NCBI GenBank assembly: GCA_017460885.1
Contig: JAFUAB010000046.1
Coordinates: 1 to 64,000 of the forward strand
Length of the DNA: 64,000 bases
Direction: 5' to 3'
DNA from: Lachnospiraceae bacterium
GTDB lineage: Bacteria > Bacillota > Clostridia > Lachnospirales > Lachnospiraceae
Under the pieces are notes generated by a model that was given only the letters and a program-made list of their open reading frames with translations, was not told the DNA's origin and made no database searches. Each line of letters begins with the position of its first letter. The first letter of the stretch is position 1. Shown here piece after piece: positions 52,782 to 63,838 of this stretch. A program made the translations under genes and the position numbers.

Positions 52782-53369
52782 ATGGTAATAAAAAGCGTAA
52801 ATCTTGATCATGTCTGCGGCGTGACGAGCAAACTGCCGGAGAATACTCTGCCTGAAGTCGCTTTTGCGGGCAAGAGCAATGTCGGTAAGTCGTCACTGAT
52901 CAATGCCGTGATGAACAGAAAGTCCTTTGCCAGGACATCGCAGACCCCGGGAAAAACCCAGACGATAAATTACTATAATATAAATGACGCATTCTATCTG
53001 GTGGATCTGCCGGGATACGGATATGCAAAGGCCGGAAGGGAGCTTGCGGAGAGCTGGGGAAAGCTGATAGAAGATTATCTGTACAGCTCCGGGGTACTCA
53101 AACAGGTTTTTCTGCTCATAGATATCAGACATGAGCCCTCGGATAACGACAAGATGATGTATGACTGGATACGTTCAAGAGGATTTGATCCCGTCATCAT
53201 TCTAACCAAATCGGATAAGATCAAGAGAAGCCAATTGAACAAACAGACCGAAATGATAAGAAGGGCGCTTAAGCTTACGGACGATACGGTCGTCTTTACC
53301 TTTTCGGCGGTAAATAAAGAAGGAAGAGATCAAATAACTGATTATATAGAGGAGATATGCAGCCTATGA
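52782..53369 (+). CDS. engB: Ribosome biogenesis GTP-binding protein EngB/YsxC
   Basis: EngB is a small essential GTPase for assembly of the large ribosomal subunit. The 195-residue protein has all G motifs: AGKSNVGKSSLINAV (G1), the switch region FARTSQTPGKTQTINYYNIN, DLPGYGYAKAG (G3), ILTKSDKIK (G4) and FSAVNKEG (G5). Its start lies two bases after the lon stop and its end overlaps rho by 13 bases. Confidence 0.96.
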   Translation: MVIKSVNLDHVCGVTSKLPENTLPEVAFAGKSNVGKSSLINAVMNRKSFARTSQTPGKTQTINYYNINDAFYLVDLPGYGYAKAGRELAESWGKLIEDYLYSSGVLKQVFLLIDIRHEPSDNDKMMYDWIRSRGFDPVIILTKSDKIKRSQLNKQTEMIRRALKLTDDTVVFTFSAVNKEGRDQITDYIEEICSL

Positions 53370-54907
53370 CAAGAGAACAATACGAAACTCTCAAACTGAC
53401 AGACTTAAAGGCTCTGGCTAAGACCAGAGAGATCAGGATACCGACAGGAGCAAAAAAGGAGGACATAATCGGTCTGATGTTGGAAAAGGATCGCGAGGAG
53501 GGAGGAAGGACAGCAGGTGTTCCGACCGCATCTGCACCTGCCAGACAGGAATCCGGGCATTCTGCGCGTGAATCACAGCAGTCGAACGACGCTCGCCAGA
53601 CCGGTTCCGACAATCGCAGGGACAGAAGCGAAACCCGCCAGTCTGCGGAGTCTCAGCCTGCCAGAAGCGAAACCCGCCAGCCCGGAGGTGAAGCCGGACA
53701 GCAGGGAGGACGTCCTCAGGGCGAAAACAGATATTCCGCCAATCCGGAGAGGACGAGACCCGAGGAATTTGCTCCCGAGGAAGTCGGACAACGTGCACAC
53801 GGCATACTGGAGGTCATGCCCGACGGATTCGGGTTCATCAGATGTGAGAATTATCTGCCCGGTGAGAATGATGTGTACGTGGCTCCCGGCCAGATCAGAC
53901 GCTTTGGACTCAAGACCGGAGATATACTCGAGGGAATGACCAAGGTCAAGACCCAGAGTGAGAAATTCAGTGCGCTGCTTTATCTGCAGACCATCAACGG
54001 ATACGCTCCCGAGATCGCGATGCGCAGACCGAATTTTGAGGATCTGACACCCATTTTTCCCAACGAAAGGATCCAGCTTGAGTATCCCGGTGTCGCTTCG
54101 TCGATGAGGATAATGGATCTGATATGTCCCGTAGGAAAGGGACAGAGAGGAATGATCGTGTCTCCTCCCAAGGCAGGTAAGACCACTCTGCTTAAGGAGG
54201 TTGCGCGTTCTGTTAAACACAATAATCCTGATATCCACCTGATCATACTGCTCATAGATGAGCGTCCCGAGGAAGTAACGGATATCAAGGAGGCCATAGA
54301 GGGCAGGAATGTGGAGGTCATCTACTCCACCTTTGATGAGCTTCCGGAGCATCATAAGAGAGTATCCGAAATGGTCATAGAGAGAGCGAGGCGTCTGGTT
54401 GAACACGGAAAGGATGTAATGATCCTGTTAGACTCTATTACGAGACTTGCGAGGGCATACAACCTGACAGTTTCTCCCTCGGGCCGTACGCTTTCGGGTG
54501 GTCTGGATCCCGCGGCGCTGCATATGCCCAAGAGATTTTTCGGTGCGGCCAGAAATATGAGGGAGGGCGGAAGCCTGACGATACTGGCAACAGCCCTTGT
54601 GGAGACCGGATCCAAGATGGATGACGTTGTATACGAGGAATTCAAGGGAACCGGCAACATGGAAATGGTACTGGACCGCAAGCTGTCGGAAAAGAGGGTG
54701 TTCCCCGCGATAGATCTGCCCAAGTCGAGCACGAGGCGTGAGGATCTTCTGCTTTCGGACGAGGAGCTTGAGGCCATCAATATCATCCGCAAGTCGCTGA
54801 ATGCTTTAAAGCCCGATGAGGCGGTCGATCATATCCTTGATATGTTTGCCAAGACCAAGAATAACAATGAGTTTGTGCAGGTTGTGAAGAAACACAGAAT
54901 TATTTAG
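53357..54907 (+). CDS. rho: Transcription termination factor Rho with N-terminal insert
   Basis: Rho is the hexameric RNA helicase for factor-dependent termination. The 516-residue protein has the Rho N domain ([20 protein letters not shown]), then a disordered insert of about 100 residues rich in Arg, Gln, Ser and Glu with repeats ([19 protein letters not shown]). The RNA-binding CSD domain follows ([14 protein letters not shown]), then the ATPase with Walker [15 protein letters not shown] and [14 protein letters not shown]. Such inserts occur in several Clostridia and can alter RNA binding or condensation. The insert makes it about 100 residues longer than E. coli Rho. Its TAG stop overlaps the arsR stop on the other strand. 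Confidence 0.96.
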
Positions 54908-55185
54908 TGATCTTCTCTGATATGCTCCATTCCCATGGCGATGATCGTACGCACATGGTCATCGTCGAGGGAATAGATGATCTGCTTTCCGTTGCGGCTC
55001 GATTTCACCAGATGTGAATTCTTGAGATTCTTGAGCTGGTGTGAGATGGCCGACTGCGTCATCTTTAGTCTGTCGGCTATATCCTGTACACACAGTTCAT
55101 CATCCATCAGTGTCTGCATGATGCGCAGTCTGGTCGCATCACCGAATACTTTGAATATTTCAGCTAACATTTCCGTTTCATTCAT
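54904..55185 (-). CDS. ArsR/SmtB-family zinc-type metal-responsive repressor
   Basis: The start is ATG 55185 (MNETEMLAEIFKVFGDATRL); the long upstream frame belongs to the ATPase region. The 93-residue winged helix has DIADRLKMTQSAISHQLKNL as recognition helix. In the last helix [20 protein letters not shown] gives Asp, His, His and Glu at the spacing of the alpha-5 zinc site of SmtB, CadC and CzrA. In the alpha-3 region ELCVQD keeps only one of the two Cys of CadC, so a zinc sensor is favoured over cadmium/lead. It is the last gene of the efflux operon, a feedback layout. Confidence 0.9.
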   Translation of the reverse strand: MNETEMLAEIFKVFGDATRLRIMQTLMDDELCVQDIADRLKMTQSAISHQLKNLKNSHLVKSSRNGKQIIYSLDDDHVRTIIAMGMEHIREDH

Positions 55186-55190
55186 GATAA

Positions 55191-57101
55191 TCACCCTTTT
55201 TTGACCGAAAGCGCCCGGATCGCATTGAGGACCGCGATAACCATTACGCCCACATCCGCAAATATAGCCAGCCACATATTGGCTATGCCGATCGCACCGA
55301 GCAGGAGGCATATGAGCTTGACACCGATGGCAAAGTAGATGTTCTCATATACTATCCTCATGCATTTGCGGGAAATACGTATCGCTCTGCAGATCCCCAT
55401 GGGGTCGTCATCCATCAGCACGATATCGGCGGCTTCTATTGCCGCATCCGAACCCAGAGCTCCCATCGCGATACCTACGTCTGCAAGGGAGAGGACAGGA
55501 GCGTCGTTGATGCCGTCTCCGACGAATGTGAGTATCTTTCCCGACGGTTTTTCGGCAAGGAGTTTTTCGACATGAGACACCTTATCCTCCGGCATCAGAT
55601 TGGAGTAGTGATCCTTGATGCCAAGCTCGCCGGCGATCCTTGATGCCGTTTCATGGTTATCACCGGTAAGCATTACTATCCTGTTTATATTCATCCGTCT
55701 GAGAGTATTAATTGCATTGGCCGAACCGGGCTTCAGCGTATCGTTCATGACTATGCATCCGGCTAATACGCCGTCTATTGCCACATATACGCAGGTGCCG
55801 GGGGTTGAAGGAATGTCATATTTTATGGAATACTGATCCATGAGCTTATGATTGCCGGCATATACCCTGTGACCCGAGATATCTGCGGAAACTCCCATTC
55901 CGCCGTGCTCGGCGACGTTTTCGGCTGCAGGCAGGGGTTCTGTACTGAATTCCTCGTTATACCTCTCGCAGAGGCAGCGTGCTATCGGGTGAGTGGAGTT
56001 CTGTTCCGCTGCCGCAGCATACTTCAACAGCTCCCCGCTTTCTATCGAGTTACTGCTGATATCCGTAACCTTGAAACGTCCGAGGGTGAGAGTACCCGTC
56101 TTATCCATTACCACACAGGCAGTTTTGCTGAGCGCTTCGAGATAGTTGGAGCCCTTGACCAGGACTCCGGCTCTGGAGGCTCCTCCGATCCCCGCAAAAA
56201 AAGTGAGCGGTATGCTGATGACCAGTGCACAGGGACAACTGATGACCAGGAAGGTCAATGCCCTGTAGATCCATGTACTCCAGGTAAATCCGAGGTGAAG
56301 AAGCGTTCCGGATATGATAGGAGGTATTACGGCCAGAACTGCGGCGGTGATGCATACCGCAGGAGTATAGACTCTGGCGAATCTGGTGATGAAATTCTCG
56401 GATCTGGATTTGTTGGAGCTTGAGTTTTCTACAAGCTCGAGTATTTTGGAGGCAGTGGATTCGCCAAATTCACGTGTTGTCCTGACGGTGACCGTACCGG
56501 TCAGATTGATGCATCCGCTCAGAACAGTATCTCCCTCCGCGGCCTCTCTCGGCATACTTTCACCGGTCAGAGCTGCGGTATCCAACGTAGTACTGCCCTG
56601 TATGATAACACCGTCTATCGGAACCTTGTCACCGGCTCTGACGATTATCTCGCTTCCGGTCGCCACCTCATCCGGATCGACAGTGACCTGTTCACCATCC
56701 CTGAGGAGTATCGCCGTATCGGGGCGGATATCCATCAGATCCGATATGCTTCGGCGGCTTTTGCCGAGAGCGATACCCTGAAAGAGTTCGCCGATCTGAT
56801 AGAAGAGCATAACGGCTATGGCTTCCAGATAGTCGCCGCTTCGTGAATAGATCGCCAGCACGTAAGCCCCGACCGTCGCCACCGCCATCAGAAAGTTTTC
56901 ATCCAGCAGCTGACCGTTTTTGATACCCTTGAAGGCATTGATCAGGATGTCGTAGCCTATCTCGAGATATACTGCGGTGTAAAGTATAAATCTGGCTATT
57001 ACCCAGGGAAGAGAAGAGCCCCAGGGAATAAATGCAAGTATGATGAGCGCAGCCACCGCAATGATGATGCGCACGAGCATTTTTTTCTGTTTTTTATTCA
57101 T
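55191..57101 (-). CDS. Zinc/cadmium/lead P-type ATPase (ZntA/CadA-like) lacking the HMA domain
   Basis: The 636-residue exporter has the P1B motif set: TGES in the actuator domain, SCPCALVISIP in the membrane (CPC metal site), DKTGTLTLGRFK (phosphorylated Asp), STHPIARCL and GDGINDAPVLSLADVG. The last helices carry IFADVGVMVIAVLNAIRAL, where the Asp marks the zinc/cadmium/lead group. It starts directly with basic residues and the first membrane helix; the usual N-terminal metal-binding domain is missing and is encoded by the preceding gene, which overlaps it by four bases. The arsR gene follows after five bases. Confidence 0.93.
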   Translation of the reverse strand: MNKKQKKMLVRIIIAVAALIILAFIPWGSSLPWVIARFILYTAVYLEIGYDILINAFKGIKNGQLLDENFLMAVATVGAYVLAIYSRSGDYLEAIAVMLFYQIGELFQGIALGKSRRSISDLMDIRPDTAILLRDGEQVTVDPDEVATGSEIIVRAGDKVPIDGVIIQGSTTLDTAALTGESMPREAAEGDTVLSGCINLTGTVTVRTTREFGESTASKILELVENSSSNKSRSENFITRFARVYTPAVCITAAVLAVIPPIISGTLLHLGFTWSTWIYRALTFLVISCPCALVISIPLTFFAGIGGASRAGVLVKGSNYLEALSKTACVVMDKTGTLTLGRFKVTDISSNSIESGELLKYAAAAEQNSTHPIARCLCERYNEEFSTEPLPAAENVAEHGGMGVSADISGHRVYAGNHKLMDQYSIKYDIPSTPGTCVYVAIDGVLAGCIVMNDTLKPGSANAINTLRRMNINRIVMLTGDNHETASRIAGELGIKDHYSNLMPEDKVSHVEKLLAEKPSGKILTFVGDGINDAPVLSLADVGIAMGALGSDAAIEAADIVLMDDDPMGICRAIRISRKCMRIVYENIYFAIGVKLICLLLGAIGIANMWLAIFADVGVMVIAVLNAIRALSVKKG

Positions 57102-57480: not shown

Positions 57481-57582
57481 TATAGTCAACGAATTTAGTA
57501 ATTGCCGTATGACGAGCCATAATGCTGGAATTTATGGCAGTTATGGCTCGCCAAAGTGCAATTAATTAATTCGTTTACTATA
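57481..57582. repeat. MITE-like palindromic element, longest copy
   Basis: The 102-bp element has inverted termini of about 25 bp: TATAGTCAACGAATTTAGTA on the left and, read on the other strand, TATAGTAAACGAATTAATTA on the right, both followed by ATTGC. An inner 10-bp stem CGAGCCATAA/TTATGGCTCG completes a long hairpin. No coding capacity. Related copies are at 24458, 34254 and 47002. Confidence 0.8.
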
Positions 57583-57603
57583 ATTATACCGATATGATAT
57601 AAT
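57574..57603 (+). promoter_or_regulatory. Putative dctP promoter using the repeat end as -35
   Basis: TTTACT (57574-57579), inside the right terminus of the repeat, and TATAAT (57598-57603) have an 18-bp spacer. The leader to ATG 57652 is about 43 bases and contains GCGGAGG. Confidence 0.45.
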
Positions 57604-57651: not shown

Positions 57652-58641
57652 ATGAAGAGAAGTATATTGATCTTGGTATCCGTGATGGCAGCGGGGATCA
57701 TTCTGACCGGTTGCGGTTCATCAGGAGACAGTGGCAATGAAGCGCTGATCCTTAAAGCCGGGTTTTCCACTTCGGCGTCGGATCCGAGAGTCGTTGCAAC
57801 GGAACTTTTTAAAGAAGAAGTCGAAAAAGCCACGGATGGAAGGATAACAATCGAGATCCATCCTGACGGCGAGCTGGGGTCGGATGCGGATCTGATCAGT
57901 GGGGTCGTCAACGGCGAGGTTGATATTACCGCGTCCAGTGCCGGTAACTTTGCCACCTATTCCACCAACGTCGGAATCTCGGCGTTTCCTTTTCTTTTTG
58001 ACAGTTTTGATCAGGCCTGGGAATTTGTGGACGGGGATATCGAGGTACAGGCCGAAAAGGATCTGAAGGATTATAACATCAATGTTCTGGCGCACTATGA
58101 TAACGGATTCAGGTGTGTTACCACATCCGAAAAGGTGGGACCGGTAAACTCCGTCAGTGACATGGAGGGGCTGATCATACGTACTCCCGAGAATCAGGTT
58201 GTCATGCAGACGATGCTGATGCTCGGAGCCGAACCCAGGATACTGGAGTTTACCAAGCTCTATGATGCGCTCCGGAAGGGTGATTTCGATGCCCAGGAGA
58301 ATCCCATTCCTGTCATATACAACAATAATCTGTATGAGGTGCAGTCAAATCTGGCGATCACAAACCACAGCTACGATGTTATGCTTTTTGTTATAAGGGA
58401 TGATATCTGGAGAACCCTTTCCGTGGAGGACCGGCAGATACTAAAGGATGCTGCCGCAAAAGCCCAGTCTAAGGACAGAGAACTGATCAGGACCCAGACG
58501 GAGGATTACATCCAGAAGCTTCAGGAGGCAGGTATGAATGTTACATACCCGGATCTGGAGGAATTTAAGAAAGCCACTGCTTCCGCAACAGAGTTATTTG
58601 CGGATACATACGATCAGAGTCTTTTGAGTCAGATCAAGTGA
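57652..58641 (+). CDS. Orphan TRAP-type solute-binding lipoprotein (DctP family)
   Basis: The start ATG 57652 follows CGGAGGAAA. The signal peptide ILILVSVMAAGIILTGC ends in a lipobox, so the protein is anchored outside. The DctP family features are present: LILKAGFSTSASDPRV, IEIHPDGELGSDADLI, the NSVSDMEGLIIRTPENQVV region with the conserved Arg for the carboxylate of the ligand, and FDAQENPIPVIYNN. The 329-residue length is typical. No DctQ or DctM permease genes follow; instead a seven-helix hybrid kinase starts 16 bases later. It may therefore serve as a ligand sensor for the kinase rather than for uptake. Confidence 0.88.
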   Translation: MKRSILILVSVMAAGIILTGCGSSGDSGNEALILKAGFSTSASDPRVVATELFKEEVEKATDGRITIEIHPDGELGSDADLISGVVNGEVDITASSAGNFATYSTNVGISAFPFLFDSFDQAWEFVDGDIEVQAEKDLKDYNINVLAHYDNGFRCVTTSEKVGPVNSVSDMEGLIIRTPENQVVMQTMLMLGAEPRILEFTKLYDALRKGDFDAQENPIPVIYNNNLYEVQSNLAITNHSYDVMLFVIRDDIWRTLSVEDRQILKDAAAKAQSKDRELIRTQTEDYIQKLQEAGMNVTYPDLEEFKKATASATELFADTYDQSLLSQIK

Positions 58642-58657
58642 CCGGATAGATTTTAAA

Positions 58658-61600
58658 ATGTTAGGTTTCAGGATCACATTTCTGATACTTGCCGCGGCGG
58701 TGTTTTCATTTCTGGTGGCGGGGATCAGATTTAAAAGAAGAAATACAGGCTTTATCATTACGGCAGCCCTTACGGTCTGCTGCGATATCGCCTGCTTTTT
58801 TCTGCTTGGAGCCGCAGGTATAGCGTCGGCCAGGAATGCCCTCGTGGCTTATTATATCTTTCATGCGTGGATCGGCGTTGGCCTGGTCTGGATGACGTCT
58901 TCCCTGGACAGATATAAGAGCTTCTATCTGTATATAGTTCCCGGAGCGCTGCTGAGTATTATGCAGACCGTACTGATGGTGATGCAGATGCTCGGAGTCA
59001 AGGTTATGTTCTTTCAGAAGCATATACTGCTTGGACGTAACTGGTGGATCGCATATGACAGCGCGGATACGGTGGCACTGATCAGCTTCAGGTCTTACAG
59101 AATACTGACATATGTCGGCTTTCTGCTCATTCTGATCAAAATCGTGATAGGAGTATTCAGATCACAGAGGATATTCAGAGGCAGATATCTGCTGTGGCTT
59201 TCTCTTATCCTTGTTCTTTCCGTTCTGGAGGGGTTATCCGCATCCTATCAGCTGCCGGTATGGGTGATGTGCCTGTCCGTGGATCTGACGGTTCTTGTCG
59301 GGTTTTATCTGGTCTATCTTTATCCGCATAACAAACTAAAAGACTGGTCCATGGATCTCTTCGCGAATGAAATGAGTGACGGGATGATCCTTTATGATGA
59401 GTACAGGGATCTTGTACACATGAATGATATCACCAGAGAGACTCTGCCCGCAGAGCTGCTCGAAAGCTTCAGCAGCATCGAAAAGATCGATGAATGGCTG
59501 TCCGATACCGTTGAAATAGAAAGTCTGGAGACGGTAAGACAGGTAAATGATGATAAGGAATATTTCTTTAAAGTAAAGAGAACGGAGCTGACGGAGAACG
59601 GCTCAAGTCTCGGTATAATGTATATCCTGCATGATACCACGGCTTCCATCAGGCAGATCCGGATCATGGAGGAGGCAAACAGGGAGCTCGAGCAGGCGGC
59701 CAGGATGAAGTCCGATTTCCTGGCGAATATGTCTCACGAGATCCGTACTCCCATGAATGCGGTCATAGGCATGGCCGAGATAGCACTCAGGGAGGAACTG
59801 CCGGACAATGTCACCGATTATCTTACACAGATACAGAGCTCGGGACGTAATCTTCTGAACATCATCAATGATATCCTGGATTTTTCCAAGATAGAAGCCG
59901 GCAAAATGGAGATCTTTGCCGAGAGATACGAGCCCTTTTCGGAGCTTAACGATATCGCCAACGTACTTGCTACAAGGATCGGTGATAAGGATCTGGAGCT
60001 TTTTGTCATAACCGGAGCAAACATACCGCACGCACTTAACGGTGATGCGATGCGCATACGTCAGATCCTTATCAATCTGGCCAACAATGCCATCAAATTT
60101 ACCCGTCAGGGTTTTGTTATGATCGAAGTTACCTGTGAGGATACCGATGAAGACCATACGGTTATGACATATCATGTCAGGGATACGGGATCGGGTATCA
60201 AAGCAGAGGATCTGAACAAGCTCTTTGTCAGCTTTCAACAGGTTGATTCCCGCAGAAACAGATCGGTCGAGGGGACGGGGCTCGGACTTGCGATCTCACA
60301 GAAGCTCGTGGAGGCAATGGGCGGCACCATCGGCGTGGAGAGCGAATACGGCAAAGGTTCGGACTTCTGGTTTTCCGTTCCGCAGGAGATACTGGATCAC
60401 AGCTACGATATAGTGGTTGAAAACGCAGGGAACAAAAAAGCCACTGTCATAAACGAGGATCCCGAAATGGTAGCCATGTTCGTTGAGGAAATGAAACGGC
60501 TTGGCCTCGAAGCTGAGGTTATCACATCGCCCGATGAATTTGTACCTTCCGGCAAACGTGACTATGTTTTCTTTGAAGAAAACATGTATAATGATAAAAT
60601 AAAAAAGCTTCTGGATGATGATCCGGAGTGCACCGGAGTGATCCTGGTATCGTTTGCTTCGGGTTTTGTACCCGCACAGCATAATCTGCGTGTGATGAGG
60701 CGGCCTGAAACGACGCTTGGCATGGTGGGCATTCTGAATGATGCCGATACGGATCATCTGATAGAAAGGACTGCCGATGTTTTCAGGATAGATTTCACGG
60801 CTCCCGATGCCAGGATACTGGTGGTGGACGATAACGTCATCAATCTGACGATAGCGGAGGGGCTTTTGAAACCGCTGAAATGCCGGATCGATTCGGCCAC
60901 AGGCGGTCAGGCCGCTATTGATATGGTAACCAAAACAGATTACGATATAGTTCTGATGGACCATATGATGCCCGAGATAGACGGGATCGACGCCACACGC
61001 ATCATACGCGAGATGCTGGGTAATACTGAGCTTGTCATTATCGCCCTTTCGGCCAATGCGATGGAAAGCTCCAAGGATATGTTCCTGAAGGCCGGAATGA
61101 ATGATTTTGTGGCGAAGCCGATCGAGGTCAGAGATCTGGTCTCCTGTATACGTAAGTGGCTGGATCCGTCTAAGGTCATAGAGGGAGAAACCGACGACGA
61201 GACCTGCGGATCCGGAGAGGAGGCAGCGGCAGCCGTTGAATATGACGGCCTTGATTGTGCACGGGCCATATCCTCGCTGGGGTCAGCGGAGCTGTATTCC
61301 AGGATAGTCGGTGAGTATTACAGATCCGGACAGGATAAATATGACGGTATCAAACTTGCATTTGCAAATGAGGACTGGAACGATTATACTATCAGAGTTC
61401 ACGCGTTGAAGAGCAGCTCAAGGCAGATCGGCGCAGAGGAACTCGGAAGTGCCGCGGAAAACCTTGAAAAGGCCGGCAAAGCCGGAGATATCGAATATAT
61501 ACGTGCCAATAACGACGCAGCGCTGGAAGCCTTCAGGACGCTTCTCGACGGACTGGAGAAATATTTTCCGACCGAAGAAAGAGATGAGTCTCAGCTTGAG

Positions 61601-61834
61601 CCTGTCGATACCGATACCCTTGTAAGCCTGCTGGATCAGCTTGATGAAAGATGCGAAGAGCTGGACATGGACGGTATGGAAGAGGTCAAAGACCGGATGA
61701 ACGGTTATGCATATCCGGAAGAAATACATGAATTCATCAAACCGTTGTTTGACGCAATAGCAAACATAGATACGGACGCATGCGGTGAGATCACCGCACG
61801 GATCCGGGAAAGAATGGGACTTGATAATGCTTAA
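58658..61834 (+). CDS. Seven-helix hybrid histidine kinase with pseudo-receiver, receiver and HPt
   Basis: The 1058-residue protein starts with seven membrane helices (residues 1-225, ending in FYLVYLYP), then a PAS-like region and a coiled linker. HisKA has SHEIRTPMNAVIGMA with the phospho-His near 359. The ATPase has NLANNAIKFT, DTGSGIKAEDL and GTGLGLAISQKLVEAMGG. A receiver-like domain without an acceptor Asp (about 600-705) follows, then a true receiver with VVDDNVINLTIAEGLL and LMDHMMPEIDG (Asp near 768), then an HPt domain with VHALKSSSRQIG (His near 915), then a helical tail. All phosphorelay residues are present in one chain. It overlaps the next gene by eight bases. Confidence 0.93.
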   Translation: MLGFRITFLILAAAVFSFLVAGIRFKRRNTGFIITAALTVCCDIACFFLLGAAGIASARNALVAYYIFHAWIGVGLVWMTSSLDRYKSFYLYIVPGALLSIMQTVLMVMQMLGVKVMFFQKHILLGRNWWIAYDSADTVALISFRSYRILTYVGFLLILIKIVIGVFRSQRIFRGRYLLWLSLILVLSVLEGLSASYQLPVWVMCLSVDLTVLVGFYLVYLYPHNKLKDWSMDLFANEMSDGMILYDEYRDLVHMNDITRETLPAELLESFSSIEKIDEWLSDTVEIESLETVRQVNDDKEYFFKVKRTELTENGSSLGIMYILHDTTASIRQIRIMEEANRELEQAARMKSDFLANMSHEIRTPMNAVIGMAEIALREELPDNVTDYLTQIQSSGRNLLNIINDILDFSKIEAGKMEIFAERYEPFSELNDIANVLATRIGDKDLELFVITGANIPHALNGDAMRIRQILINLANNAIKFTRQGFVMIEVTCEDTDEDHTVMTYHVRDTGSGIKAEDLNKLFVSFQQVDSRRNRSVEGTGLGLAISQKLVEAMGGTIGVESEYGKGSDFWFSVPQEILDHSYDIVVENAGNKKATVINEDPEMVAMFVEEMKRLGLEAEVITSPDEFVPSGKRDYVFFEENMYNDKIKKLLDDDPECTGVILVSFASGFVPAQHNLRVMRRPETTLGMVGILNDADTDHLIERTADVFRIDFTAPDARILVVDDNVINLTIAEGLLKPLKCRIDSATGGQAAIDMVTKTDYDIVLMDHMMPEIDGIDATRIIREMLGNTELVIIALSANAMESSKDMFLKAGMNDFVAKPIEVRDLVSCIRKWLDPSKVIEGETDDETCGSGEEAAAAVEYDGLDCARAISSLGSAELYSRIVGEYYRSGQDKYDGIKLAFANEDWNDYTIRVHALKSSSRQIGAEELGSAAENLEKAGKAGDIEYIRANNDAALEAFRTLLDGLEKYFPTEERDESQLEPVDTDTLVSLLDQLDERCEELDMDGMEEVKDRMNGYAYPEEIHEFIKPLFDAIANIDTDACGEITARIRERMGLDNA

Positions 61835-62399
61835 ATTTGAAGACCTTGAAGAAAAACAGCTTTCCACGGAAAAGATCTTTGACGGAGTGATACTGCATGT
61901 ATCCAAAGACAAGGTTCAGCTTCCCAACGGACATACCAGCGAGAGAGAATATATCTCACATATGGGTGCCGTAGGCATTGTACCGCTGACGGATGACGGG
62001 AAGATCATTTTGGAAAGGCAGTTCAGATATCCCCTGCATGATGTTATCACGGAGATCCCCGCGGGAAAACTGGACGGCCCCGATGAGCCGAGACTGGAGG
62101 CAGCCAGGAGAGAACTGCTGGAGGAAACGGGTATTACCGCGGATGAATGGATCGATCTCGGAGAGTATCATCCGGCGGCGGCATATTGCAGTGAAAAACT
62201 GACGCTCTATCTGGCCAGGGGACTTCATATGGGAGACCAGAAGCTGGATACGGACGAGTTTTTGAATATATTTACGGTTCCTTTTGAAGATGCGATAGAG
62301 GATGTGTATAACGGAACGATCACCGACGGCAAATCGATTTCGGCTATTATGAGAGCTGCCGTCTATACAGGATATCTTCGGAGAAAACAGAATGTTTGA
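61827..62399 (+). CDS. Nudix hydrolase, ADP-ribose pyrophosphatase type
   Basis: The start ATG 61827 overlaps the kinase gene by eight bases. The 190-residue protein resembles NudF/ADP-ribose pyrophosphatase: HVSKDKVQLPNGHTSEREYI in the N-terminal swap domain, ILERQFRYPLHDVITEIPAG, and the Nudix box in LEAARRELLEETGI with the catalytic Glu residues. GEYHPAAAYCSEKLTLYLA follows, as in enzymes of this group. Its position inside a phosphorelay operon is unusual. The substrate may be ADP-ribose or another nucleoside diphosphate compound; only assay can tell. Confidence 0.9.
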   Translation: MLKFEDLEEKQLSTEKIFDGVILHVSKDKVQLPNGHTSEREYISHMGAVGIVPLTDDGKIILERQFRYPLHDVITEIPAGKLDGPDEPRLEAARRELLEETGITADEWIDLGEYHPAAAYCSEKLTLYLARGLHMGDQKLDTDEFLNIFTVPFEDAIEDVYNGTITDGKSISAIMRAAVYTGYLRRKQNV

Positions 62400-63210
62400 G
62401 AATTACGGAAATTCGGGATACGGAGACGGTTCGGAGGGCCGCCATATGGCGCTGGTAAGCCGCGGAGGAGGTTATCTTTTTACCAATCTCCGGAACCAGC
62501 TGCTTCAGGATGGATATTCGGTCAGCGAAGTCAATAATCTCAGCTCGATGAATAAGATCAATGTTGATATCAGCGGCTGTATAATTTATCTGGATGAGGA
62601 ATACCTTTCCGATGATAAGCTGCAGATATTTATCAGGGACAAGGTAGCCGAGGAGGGCTTTCCGATCTTTCTGGTAGGAGATCCCACCGAGATCGAGGAG
62701 GCAAAAAAGGTGTTGCCCGAAAAGCTGGTCAGCAAGGTGTTTTTGCGTCCGATAAATGTCAAGGATGTCGTATCGGAGATCGACAGGTTTTATGAGTCCC
62801 ATAATACTTCAAACCGCAAAATGATCCTGGCTGTCGATGATTCCGGAGTTATGCTCAAGTCCATCAAGAACTGGCTCGGCGACAAATATGATATGACTCT
62901 GGCAGATTCCGCACTGGCTGCGATCAAGAGCATAACGGTCAACAGACCGGATCTGATCATACTTGACTATGAGATGCCGATCATTGACGGCAAAAAGACC
63001 ATCGCAATGATACGTGCGGAGAAGGACTTTGCCGAGATACCCGTGATCTTCCTGACGGGACGCCAGGATCGCGAAAGCATTGAGGAGGTTATGGAATATA
63101 AGCCTGACGGCTATCTGCTCAAATCCATGAAGCCTTACGCAGTGCGTAAATATGTCGATGACTTTTTTGAAAAGCTTGAAACCCAGAAGAAGATCAATTC
63201 GATCAAGTGA
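62392..63210 (+). CDS. Pseudo-receiver plus receiver response-regulator protein
   Basis: The 272-residue protein overlaps the Nudix gene by eight bases. Residues about 18-130 form a receiver-like domain without the acidic cluster (VSRGGGYLFTNLRNQLLQDG; KVFLRPINVKDVVSEID near the end). Residues about 140-260 form a complete receiver: LAVDDSGVMLKSIKNWL, the acceptor Asp in LIILDYEMPIIDG (near 191), LTGRQD and LLKSMKPYAVRKYV. There is no DNA-binding or enzymatic output domain, so it probably acts by protein binding or as a phosphate relay. The pseudo-receiver/receiver order mirrors that inside the hybrid kinase. Confidence 0.88.
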   Translation: MFENYGNSGYGDGSEGRHMALVSRGGGYLFTNLRNQLLQDGYSVSEVNNLSSMNKINVDISGCIIYLDEEYLSDDKLQIFIRDKVAEEGFPIFLVGDPTEIEEAKKVLPEKLVSKVFLRPINVKDVVSEIDRFYESHNTSNRKMILAVDDSGVMLKSIKNWLGDKYDMTLADSALAAIKSITVNRPDLIILDYEMPIIDGKKTIAMIRAEKDFAEIPVIFLTGRQDRESIEEVMEYKPDGYLLKSMKPYAVRKYVDDFFEKLETQKKINSIK

Positions 63211-63227
63211 GAAGAAGGGAGACCGGA

Positions 63228-63584
63228 ATGGCTGATTATGATACAAATGAACTGAATGTAAAAGAGGGTATGGAATACGCAATGGATGATCCCGAGCTGT
63301 ATGCGGATATCCTGAGGACTTATCTGGATGAAACCGCAGAGGAGCTGATTCGGATGGATCAGTATCTGGCGGATGATAACATGTCCGAATATGCGACGCT
63401 GGTACATGCAGTCAAATCAGGCTCCCGTCTGATCGGAGCCATGGATCTGGGAGATGAAGCCCTCGATCTCGAGCAGAAGTCAAAGGCCGGTGATACCGAA
63501 TACATACGTGCCCACCACGATCATCTGAAGGAGCATGTAAACAAGGTGTTCGAAGCGGTGAACGGATATTTGGCCGGTGCATAG
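63228..63584 (+). CDS. Stand-alone HPt phosphotransfer protein
   Basis: The start ATG 63228 follows AGAAGGGAGA. The 118-residue helical protein has LVHAVKSGSRLIGAMDLGDE with the phospho-acceptor His, then LDLEQKSKAGDTEYIRAHHD. This region closely resembles the HPt of the hybrid kinase (VHALKSSSRQIGAEELGS, KAGKAGDIEYIRANND), so the two look like paralogues. It lies 17 bases after the response-regulator gene and is the last of the signalling operon. Confidence 0.9.
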   Translation: MADYDTNELNVKEGMEYAMDDPELYADILRTYLDETAEELIRMDQYLADDNMSEYATLVHAVKSGSRLIGAMDLGDEALDLEQKSKAGDTEYIRAHHDHLKEHVNKVFEAVNGYLAGA

Positions 63585-63648: not shown

Positions 63649-63730
63649 GCGGTTGTGATGGAATTGGCAGACATGCAGGATTTAGGTTCCTGTGCAGCGA
63701 TGCGTGTGGGTTCGACTCCCATCAACCGCA
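63649..63730 (+). tRNA. tRNA-Leu (anticodon UAG)
   Basis: The acceptor stem GCGGTTG/CAACCGC, the D arm with TGGCAGACA, the anticodon stem CAGGA/TCCTG with loop TTTAGGT (anticodon TAG, reading CUA/CUN), a class II variable arm (TGCAGCGATGCG) and the T arm GTGGGTTCGACTCCCA are visible. CCA is not encoded. It is a single gene on the plus strand. Confidence 0.93.
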
Positions 63731-63838
63731 CTAGGCTGAAGATAAAAAATTTCCGTTCTACCCCTTTTTTGAGAGGGTATATCCTCGAATATATATAGTG
63801 TAAAACAAAAAGCACTATCGGAAGACGGGGATAAACAA

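What the first reader, a model, noticed from the sequence alone, without database searches (positions are those of the whole stretch)
57652..63584. Candidate new signalling system: TRAP-type receptor, seven-helix hybrid kinase, Nudix enzyme, pseudo-receiver/receiver and HPt
Five genes are joined by overlaps of eight bases or gaps of at most 17. The binding lipoprotein has no permease and sits directly before a kinase with a seven-helix membrane part, suggesting ligand sensing. A Nudix hydrolase is translationally coupled on both sides to phosphorelay proteins. No DNA-binding output exists in the operon, so the output may be the Nudix enzyme, a diguanylate cyclase elsewhere, or motility. I do not know this combination as a described system.
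Basis: partly seen in the sequence, partly recalled or inferred. Interest (0 to 1): 0.75.

Follow-up and report, generated by a model that had tools for sequence, protein, structure and literature searches.

The report
Solute-binding receptor paired with seven-helix kinase
Rumen bacteria appear to have turned a nutrient-capture protein into a sensor part that hands its signal to a seven-helix membrane kinase; the nearby Nudix enzyme looks like an accidental neighbour.

Summary
All five genes are present as described. Comparison splits them into a conserved core and local additions.

Core: dctP and the 7TM hybrid kinase. A genome-collection scan found 29 Lachnospiraceae/Clostridia loci with this dctP (67-79% identical). 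In 24 of the 27 whose contig continues, the kinase lies directly downstream. None of 34 loci, five Treponema included, showed DctQ or DctM in the DNA held. Strong DctM matches occur in 6 of the 29 genomes, weak ones in 5, none in 18. In three of five Treponema loci dctP overlaps a GGDEF gene instead. Related 7TM kinases sit beside other binding-protein classes.

Additions: the Nudix is a widespread NudF-like enzyme, beside dctP-kinase only here. The receiver type recurs beside hybrid kinases; the HPt gene was not seen to.

Most likely a binding lipoprotein recruited from TRAP transport is the ligand-sensing co-receptor of a divergent HisKA_7TM phosphorelay kinase. Contact, ligand and output are inferred. 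The 7TM model resembles class C GPCRs, but so does another bacterial 7TM kinase. New variant of a known kind; the Nudix claim is not supported.

The parts
57574..57603 (+). promoter-like site before dctP (TTTACT-18-TATAAT, TG before -10)
   Evidence: consensus scan; 22 sites found in the region against 12.0 +/- 3.4 in shuffles; no evidence of function
57652..58641 (+). dctP: binding lipoprotein (lipobox Cys21, TRAP arginine Arg177), proposed ligand-binding co-receptor
   Evidence: Pfam DctP 1.3e-73; TIGR00787 215 bits over cut-off 175; Cys21, Arg154, Arg177 and Asn217 invariant in 7 receptor-clade rows
58658..61834 (+). 7TM-PAS-HisKA-HATPase-REC-HPt hybrid histidine kinase, 1058 aa
   Evidence: Pfam, AlphaFold2 of residues 1-345, motifs
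58658..59362 (+). kinase residues 1-235: seven-helix membrane domain, divergent relative of HisKA_7TM
   Evidence: model pLDDT 86.7; profile comparison with HisKA_7TM-positive kinases 99.9%
59006..59059 (+). kinase residues 117-134: predicted outer beta-hairpin between helices 4 and 5, with G126/W129/W130; candidate docking site
   Evidence: docking role is inference; the region is not more conserved than the helices
59378..59635 (+). kinase residues 241-326: PAS-like domain
   Evidence: fold in the model, PAS chains among Foldseek hits; no Pfam PAS match
59705..59902 (+). HisKA domain
   Evidence: residues 350-415
60041..60388 (+). HATPase_c domain
   Evidence: residues 462-577
60815..61150 (+). 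receiver domain of the hybrid kinase
   Evidence: residues 720-831
61307..61549 (+). HPt domain of the hybrid kinase
   Evidence: residues 884-964
61827..62399 (+). Nudix hydrolase, NudF/ADP-ribose pyrophosphatase type; most likely a passenger
62392..63210 (+). degenerate N-terminal domain + intact receiver (stand-alone phospho-acceptor)
63207..63584 (+). stand-alone HPt protein (ATG at 63228 is an alternative start)

Best explanation
dctP and the kinase form a two-protein extracellular receptor. A TRAP-type binding protein lost its permease and became a lipid-anchored ligand-binding co-receptor. When it closes on a small carboxylate it is proposed to touch the outer face of the seven-helix domain, most likely the beta-hairpin between helices 4 and 5. 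The change passes through the PAS-like domain to the HisKA/HATPase core, then along the relay His to REC-Asp to HPt-His inside the kinase, and out to a separate receiver. In this genome the receiver protein and HPt encoded downstream are the nearest candidates; in most related loci the acceptor must lie in trans. The Nudix gene is an inserted housekeeping neighbour. Shown here: the domains, the intact motifs, the recurring pairing, the lack of a permease beside dctP. Inferred: lipid anchoring (from the lipobox), docking, ligand class, direction of control and output.
For: 29 Lachnospiraceae/Clostridia loci with this dctP at 67-79% identity; in 24 of the 27 evaluable ones the 7TM kinase follows on the same strand, -4 to +124 nt away. 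The 3 genomes without an adjacent kinase and the 2 whose dctP ends the contig still encode such a kinase somewhere (9 of 9 genomes tested, four of which were known to have the pair; in the L178 genome only a 268-aa frame). The kinase type is rare: 13 of 397 family genomes, 1 of 398 phylum genomes. DctQ/DctM beside dctP: 0 of 34 loci in the DNA held. DctM anywhere in the 29 genomes: strong (E below 1e-50) in 6, weak in 5, none in 18, the last including the isolate XBB2008, whose contig matches handle G152, listed 99% complete. Starting from the kinase, 15 of 23 matches in 13 genomes have a binding protein as immediate same-strand neighbour, of several classes (DctP, SBP_bac_1, Peripla_BP_3, SBP_bac_8). 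Of seven PF16927-positive kinases of another type, one (L235, which is also one of the 15) has a binding-protein neighbour among the genes checked. The TRAP arginine is retained, so a carboxylate ligand remains possible.
Against: No physical interaction, ligand or phosphotransfer was tested. The DctP-linked kinases are not one clade (AU p 0.012, quick tree of 30 of 38 kinase records). Three loci have dctP without an adjacent kinase (L160, L166, L178) and in G796:C51 the two are convergent. Treponema pairs its dctP with a different sensor. Four of the 23 kinases have no recognised binding-protein gene beside them (G112:C57, G000:C49, G717:C188, G152:C15:406592), and two genomes with the kinase (G112, G116) gave no dctP match at E 1e-20. 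The 7TM domain has no large outer domain of the kind reported for CuaS. In 11 of the 29 genomes a DctM match passes Pfam's cut-off (6 strong, 5 weak and partial), so an unlinked transport partner is not excluded there; most genomes are draft bins. DctP is far better conserved than the kinase's membrane part (67-79% against 31-45%).
Confidence: 0.66

Rival explanations
1. The 7TM domain binds its own ligand; DctP is a regulated or accessory binding protein that traps or presents nutrients but does not touch the kinase.
For: The 7TM family exists without a recognised binding-protein neighbour (4 of 23 loci) and with several binding-protein classes; 3 of 27 dctPs have no adjacent kinase; the outer loops are short.
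Against: In the 18 genomes without any DctM match DctP has no evident TRAP use; the pairing recurs in 24 of 27 loci.
Confidence: 0.17
2. DctP is an ordinary transport subunit that delivers its ligand to a TRAP or other transporter encoded elsewhere; the kinase regulates that uptake.
For: The window genome has one TRAP set on another contig; 11 of 29 related genomes have a DctM match over Pfam's cut-off; relatives at 50-52% identity sit with DctQM in 3 of 4 Lachnospiraceae loci opened.
Against: 18 of 29 genomes have no DctM match and 5 only weak partial ones; the own cognate DctP is only 28% identical over 282 aa; 22 positions fixed in the orphan clade differ from three TRAP-linked DctPs.
Confidence: 0.1
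3. One reading: one five-gene signalling system whose output is the Nudix enzyme.
For: Overlapping genes in the window. In two same-genus genomes (G041, G152) a different Nudix gene precedes a Peripla_BP_3-7TM kinase pair.
Against: No other dctP-kinase locus read has a Nudix gene similar to the window's beside it (one 29% match six kb away in L162); NudF-like genes occur in 111 of 150 family genomes; the second Nudix aligns to the window's over 60 residues only and may be chance.
Confidence: 0.06

Closest known systems
SBP-kinase three-component systems, e.g. CuaD-CuaS-CuaR of Ruminiclostridium cellulolyticum (PMC10384115, passages read)
   Same: A binding lipoprotein encoded next to a histidine kinase, separate from the transport binding protein; proposed to raise ligand sensitivity.
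   Different: CuaS has two helices around a 267-residue outer domain, HAMP, and an AraC-type regulator in the operon; here the kinase has seven helices, only short outer loops, an internal REC-HPt relay and no DNA-binding partner. The binding protein class differs (CuaD family 1, here TRAP-type).
BctC-BctE (passages); XylFII-LytS (title and passing mention); TorT-TorS and LuxP-LuxQ (recalled)
   Same: Binding proteins acting on histidine kinases; BctC belongs to the TTT class of carboxylate binding proteins.
   Different: BctE and, from memory, the others have outer sensor domains; BctC also serves a transporter. None of the passages read describes a TRAP DctP working with a kinase.
NspS-MbaA (search listing with abstract starts only; domain make-up of MbaA recalled)
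   Same: Same logic as the Treponema loci: binding protein plus c-di-GMP enzyme.
   Different: NspS senses polyamines and MbaA is, from memory, a GGDEF-EAL protein; the Treponema sensors scanned are dCache-PAS-GGDEF.
HisKA_7TM kinases (Pfam PF16927)
   Same: Seven helices N-terminal to a PAS-like domain; both models have the helix 4-5 hairpin.
   Different: The window domain gives no PF16927 match itself, is joined to a REC-HPt hybrid core, and its close family is usually beside a binding protein.
Class C GPCRs (mGlu, CaSR, GABA-B)
   Different: There the flytrap is fused to the 7TM and the output is a G protein; here two proteins and a phosphorelay. No homology shown.

Membership tests
TRAP transporter (DctPQM) | DctP-family binding protein | tested here: met
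   Pfam DctP 248 bits, TIGR00787 over cut-off
TRAP transporter (DctPQM) | DctQ and DctM permease subunits beside it | tested here: not met
   None in the window locus nor, by BLAST to seven references, in 34 related loci
SBP-dependent histidine kinase system | binding-protein gene paired with a kinase gene across species | tested here: met
   24 of 27 loci
SBP-dependent histidine kinase system | ligand-loaded binding protein contacts and activates the kinase | not testable with these tools
   no multimer prediction or bench assay available
SBP-dependent histidine kinase system | folded outer sensor domain between two helices (as in CuaS) | tested here: not met
   largest outer segment about 32 residues in the model
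HisKA_7TM (PF16927) | direct Pfam match | tested here: not met
   no PF16927 hit listed for 9 family members, limit E 10, though HMMER's filters drop most matches above about 0.1
HisKA_7TM (PF16927) | profile relationship to PF16927-positive kinases | tested here: met
   A7: 7 of 7 match PF16927; A5 vs A7 probability 99.9, E 9e-31
Hybrid phosphorelay kinase (BarA-like order) | HisKA, HATPase, REC and HPt with catalytic motifs | tested here: met
   NCBIfam BarA is the best match but below its cut-off
NudF / ADP-ribose pyrophosphatase | NUDIX domain with Nudix box, closest solved relatives NudF/ADPRase | tested here: met
NudF / ADP-ribose pyrophosphatase | ADP-ribose hydrolysis | not testable with these tools
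   no assay; NCBIfam equivalogs such as NudE match below cut-off
Class C GPCR-like receptor | 7TM arrangement | tested here: inconclusive
Class C GPCR-like receptor | flytrap fused to the 7TM | tested here: not met
   20 of 23 open frames are 1047-1099 aa, the others 377, 501 and 764 aa, none long enough for an added flytrap before the 7TM

The most novel reading that the evidence does not exclude
A bacterial counterpart of class C GPCR logic split over two genes: a detached Venus-flytrap protein rests on the outer hairpin of a 7TM domain with a class C GPCR-like arrangement and drives a phosphorelay. One 7TM kinase family has taken up binding proteins of at least three classes, and one DctP receptor clade, perhaps shared by Lachnospiraceae and Treponema, feeds two unrelated outputs, a phosphorelay and a diguanylate cyclase.
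Probability: 0.2. Interest if true: 0.8.

Novelty: new variant of a known kind. Interest (0 to 1): 0.52.

Why it matters
No paper listed or 80 describes, in what was displayed, a TRAP-type DctP working as a kinase co-receptor; I did not search the literature for HisKA_7TM by name. If the pair is real it gives a concrete, testable ligand entry for a 7TM kinase, shows how a transport protein is recruited for sensing, and offers a natural series (same 7TM family, different binding proteins) for asking how a flytrap signals through seven helices.

Tried and rejected
Nudix as a conserved component: rejected. Conserved output gene beside the pair: none seen; in five of the 29 loci (L159, L164, L172, L175 downstream, L177 upstream) and in G667 (L230) a receiver protein of related build is the neighbour, otherwise the neighbours look unrelated, most of them judged by eye or by lack of a BLAST match. 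Ligand from operons of three TRAP-linked relatives: ten proteins scanned give GntR-type regulators, a cleavage enzyme of the 3-keto-5-aminohexanoate type (below cut-off), a class II aldolase-like protein (below cut-off) and a CoA-type aldehyde dehydrogenase (over cut-off), not all scanned in each operon; they point to no single substrate, and the receptor clade differs from these DctPs at 22 fixed positions. Single clade of DctP-linked kinases: rejected at p 0.012 on a quick tree. In the DctP tree outgroup branches run up to 10 changes per column, so the order of orphan, Treponema and TRAP-linked groups is not settled; Treponema rows share the orphan state at 15 of the 22 positions and the TRAP state at 6, yet sit with the TRAP-linked rows across a starred branch. 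GPCR resemblance as specific to this kinase: not supported, since the second 7TM model scores as high. A count over 88 fetched loci (29 of 37 family kinases with a same-strand binding-protein neighbour; 2 of 18 other kinases, both Peripla_BP_3-linked family members missed by the cut-off; 86 of 1037 genes) is biased, because the loci were fetched through those genes. Plasmid collection: no match to the 7TM part.

Limits of the counts. The scan finds only loci that match one of two short peptide patterns, so 29 is not a census. Loci under different ids are sometimes the same place (L153=L158, L154=L169, L155=L173, L026=L167, L027=L174, L132=L166; L228 and L180 look the same); counts of 29 and 27 use only L156-L184, and L156/L162 and L171/L183 are close relatives. 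Three of the 24 kinases are short frames: L170 and L181 end with the contig, L175 is 845 aa. ORFs were picked by a longest-non-overlapping rule with uncertain starts.

Papers: passages read in PMC9602780, PMC11113362, PMC10384115, PMC5812351, PMC8846402; listings with abstract starts only for all others; PMC8050422 was not held. TorT-TorS, LuxP-LuxQ, the domains of MbaA and details of XylFII-LytS are recalled.
Full report
What is there. Motifs of the kinase, receiver, HPt and Nudix proteins are intact. The window is the start of contig C24 of a 3.6-Mb draft genome with 99.06% completeness and 6.64% contamination. Upstream, genes that look like rho, a P-type ATPase and an ArsR-type regulator lie at 53357-57101 (names from reading the translations, not from a search); a tRNA-Leu at 63649-63731 follows the HPt gene. 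A promoter-like site lies before dctP.

The conserved unit is dctP plus kinase. A pattern-based scan of the species genome collection with an alignment of seven close DctPs returned 45 loci: 29 in Lachnospiraceae or Clostridia at 67-79% identity, 5 in Treponema at 51-58%, 11 distant proteobacterial ones. In the 29, the contig ends right after dctP in two (L168, L179). Of the other 27, 24 have the 7TM hybrid kinase directly downstream on the same strand, between -4 and +124 nt away; L160, L166 and L178 do not. Nine of the genomes were then searched for the kinase's N-terminal part: those three, the two with cut contigs, and four with the pair. All nine encode at least one such kinase (the L178 genome only a 268-aa frame). 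In 397 family genomes 13 have this kinase type, and in 398 phylum genomes only the window's own.

No permease beside it. No ORF in the 34 close loci matched four DctM or three DctQ references at E 1e-4 in the DNA held, up to 8 kb on each side where the contig allows. Across the 29 genomes, DctM matches at E below 1e-50 occur in 6, weak partial matches (E 6e-7 to 7e-4) in 5, none in 18. All 11 pass Pfam's cut-off as the tool counts it; I take the 5 weak ones for related transporters, which was not tested. All 5 Treponema genomes have DctM elsewhere. DctPs 50-52% identical were opened in four Lachnospiraceae genomes: three with DctQM (G054, G037, G149), one (G135) behind GGDEF and HD genes. The window genome's own TRAP set has a DctP only 28% identical. 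So the close clade probably left transport; this is inference from gene content in mostly draft bins.

Several binding-protein classes, one kinase family. Starting from the kinase (23 matches in 13 genomes), I read the neighbours. Immediate same-strand binding protein: 15 of 23 (DctP in G052, G674, G000, G152, G002, G667; SBP_bac_1 type in G041, G112, G152, G116, G667; Peripla_BP_3 type in G000, G041, G152; SBP_bac_8 in G796:C11). One more (G000:C14) has an SBP_bac_1 protein behind two other genes, the first a BPD_transp_1 permease; one (G796:C51) has dctP convergent; in four no binding protein was recognised, partly by eye (G112:C57, G000:C49, G717:C188, G152:C15:406592); two could not be judged (G634 contig end, G022 501-aa frame). 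A comparison set of seven kinases with a true HisKA_7TM match had a binding protein beside one, L235, among the neighbours checked; L235 is G796:C11 and so is also one of the 15, leaving 14 of 22 against 0 of 6 if it is set aside. For L035 and L037 only one neighbour was classified. The kinase tree places three kinases linked to SBP_bac_1 proteins (L024, L025, L029) and L030 beside the window kinase (SH-aLRT 99), while a fourth, L031, falls elsewhere; it rejects a single DctP-linked clade (AU p 0.012). It holds 30 of 38 kinase records - the window plus 37 - five left out as duplicates and three as short frames; quick method. I read this as partner exchange; other readings remain possible.

Treponema. 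In L186, L188 and L189 dctP overlaps the GGDEF gene before it by 8, 32 and 11 nt in the frames as picked. Pfam found dCache_1 and GGDEF, with PAS_3, in L186 (PAS below cut-off) and L188; L189 was not scanned and is GGDEF by BLAST. L185 begins at dctP, and L187 has a GGDEF-EAL gene 133 nt upstream. Of 22 positions fixed in 30 orphan DctPs (one exception allowed) but different in three TRAP-linked ones, the commonest Treponema residue is the orphan one at 15, the TRAP one at 6, neither at 1.

Nudix, receiver and HPt. The Nudix protein is closest in the PDB to NudF and ADP-ribose pyrophosphatases, and similar genes occur in 111 of 150 family genomes at one match each, the window genome included. 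Among the loci read it is next to dctP-kinase in the window alone. In G041 and G152 another Nudix gene lies before a Peripla_BP_3-kinase pair, in G041 behind an RNase E/G gene by Pfam; the G152 copy aligns with the window Nudix over 60 residues only. The receiver protein type is common beside hybrid kinases and follows the kinase in L159, L164, L172, L175 and L230.

Against my reading. Nothing here shows contact, ligand, or output. The DctP sequence is far better conserved than the kinase's membrane part (67-79% against 31-45%), which is not what tight co-evolution of an interface would most simply predict, though it fits a conserved ligand. The pairing is broken in three loci and convergent in one; two genomes (G112, G116) have the kinase but no dctP match at E 1e-20. 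Published knowledge: passages of PMC9602780 say that about ten cases of SBPs binding sensor kinases were characterised and that 13 of 22 SBP families are known to interact with receptors; PMC5812351 describes BctC signalling for the TTT class and discusses orphan TTT proteins; PMC10384115 describes CuaDSR; PMC8846402 says that of the PBP-clan families only SBP_bac_3 had been studied in c-di-GMP networks. Searches listed no paper that, in what was displayed, describes a TRAP DctP as a kinase co-receptor; most subscription papers are not in that library.

Verdict. I rate it a new variant of a known kind (binding-protein-dependent kinase) with interest 0.52.

Noticed in passing
L154:1589-6579 (also L155): A 1257-aa protein with membrane helices, Reg_prop propeller repeats, Y_Y_Y and HD domain is followed by a Bmp/PnrA-like binding protein, shortly upstream of dctP-kinase: another possible binding-protein/sensor pair (Pfam on L154 only).
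   Followed up: partly
L034:10314-12906 and L236:8420-11015: RNase E/G-like gene, Nudix, Peripla_BP_3 protein and 7TM kinase in a row in two genomes of the window's genus; in the window genome (L032) a 466-base gap lies where the Nudix would be.
   Followed up: partly
L133:7119-10267: GGDEF gene, HD-domain gene and a 49%-identical dctP in one row without DctQM (G135).
   Followed up: partly
L134, L135, L136: TRAP operons with GntR-type regulators, a keto-acid cleavage-type enzyme, class II aldolase-like protein and CoA-type aldehyde dehydrogenase: an unassigned carboxylate pathway.
   Followed up: partly
L024:2248-9126 (window genome, C14): 7TM kinase followed by a BPD_transp_1 permease, a second gene of similar size and an SBP_bac_1 protein: perhaps the state before the binding protein was freed from its transporter.
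   Followed up: no
window 54904-57101: P-type ATPase-like and ArsR-like genes reading away from dctP, upstream of the operon (identified by eye from translations).
   Followed up: no
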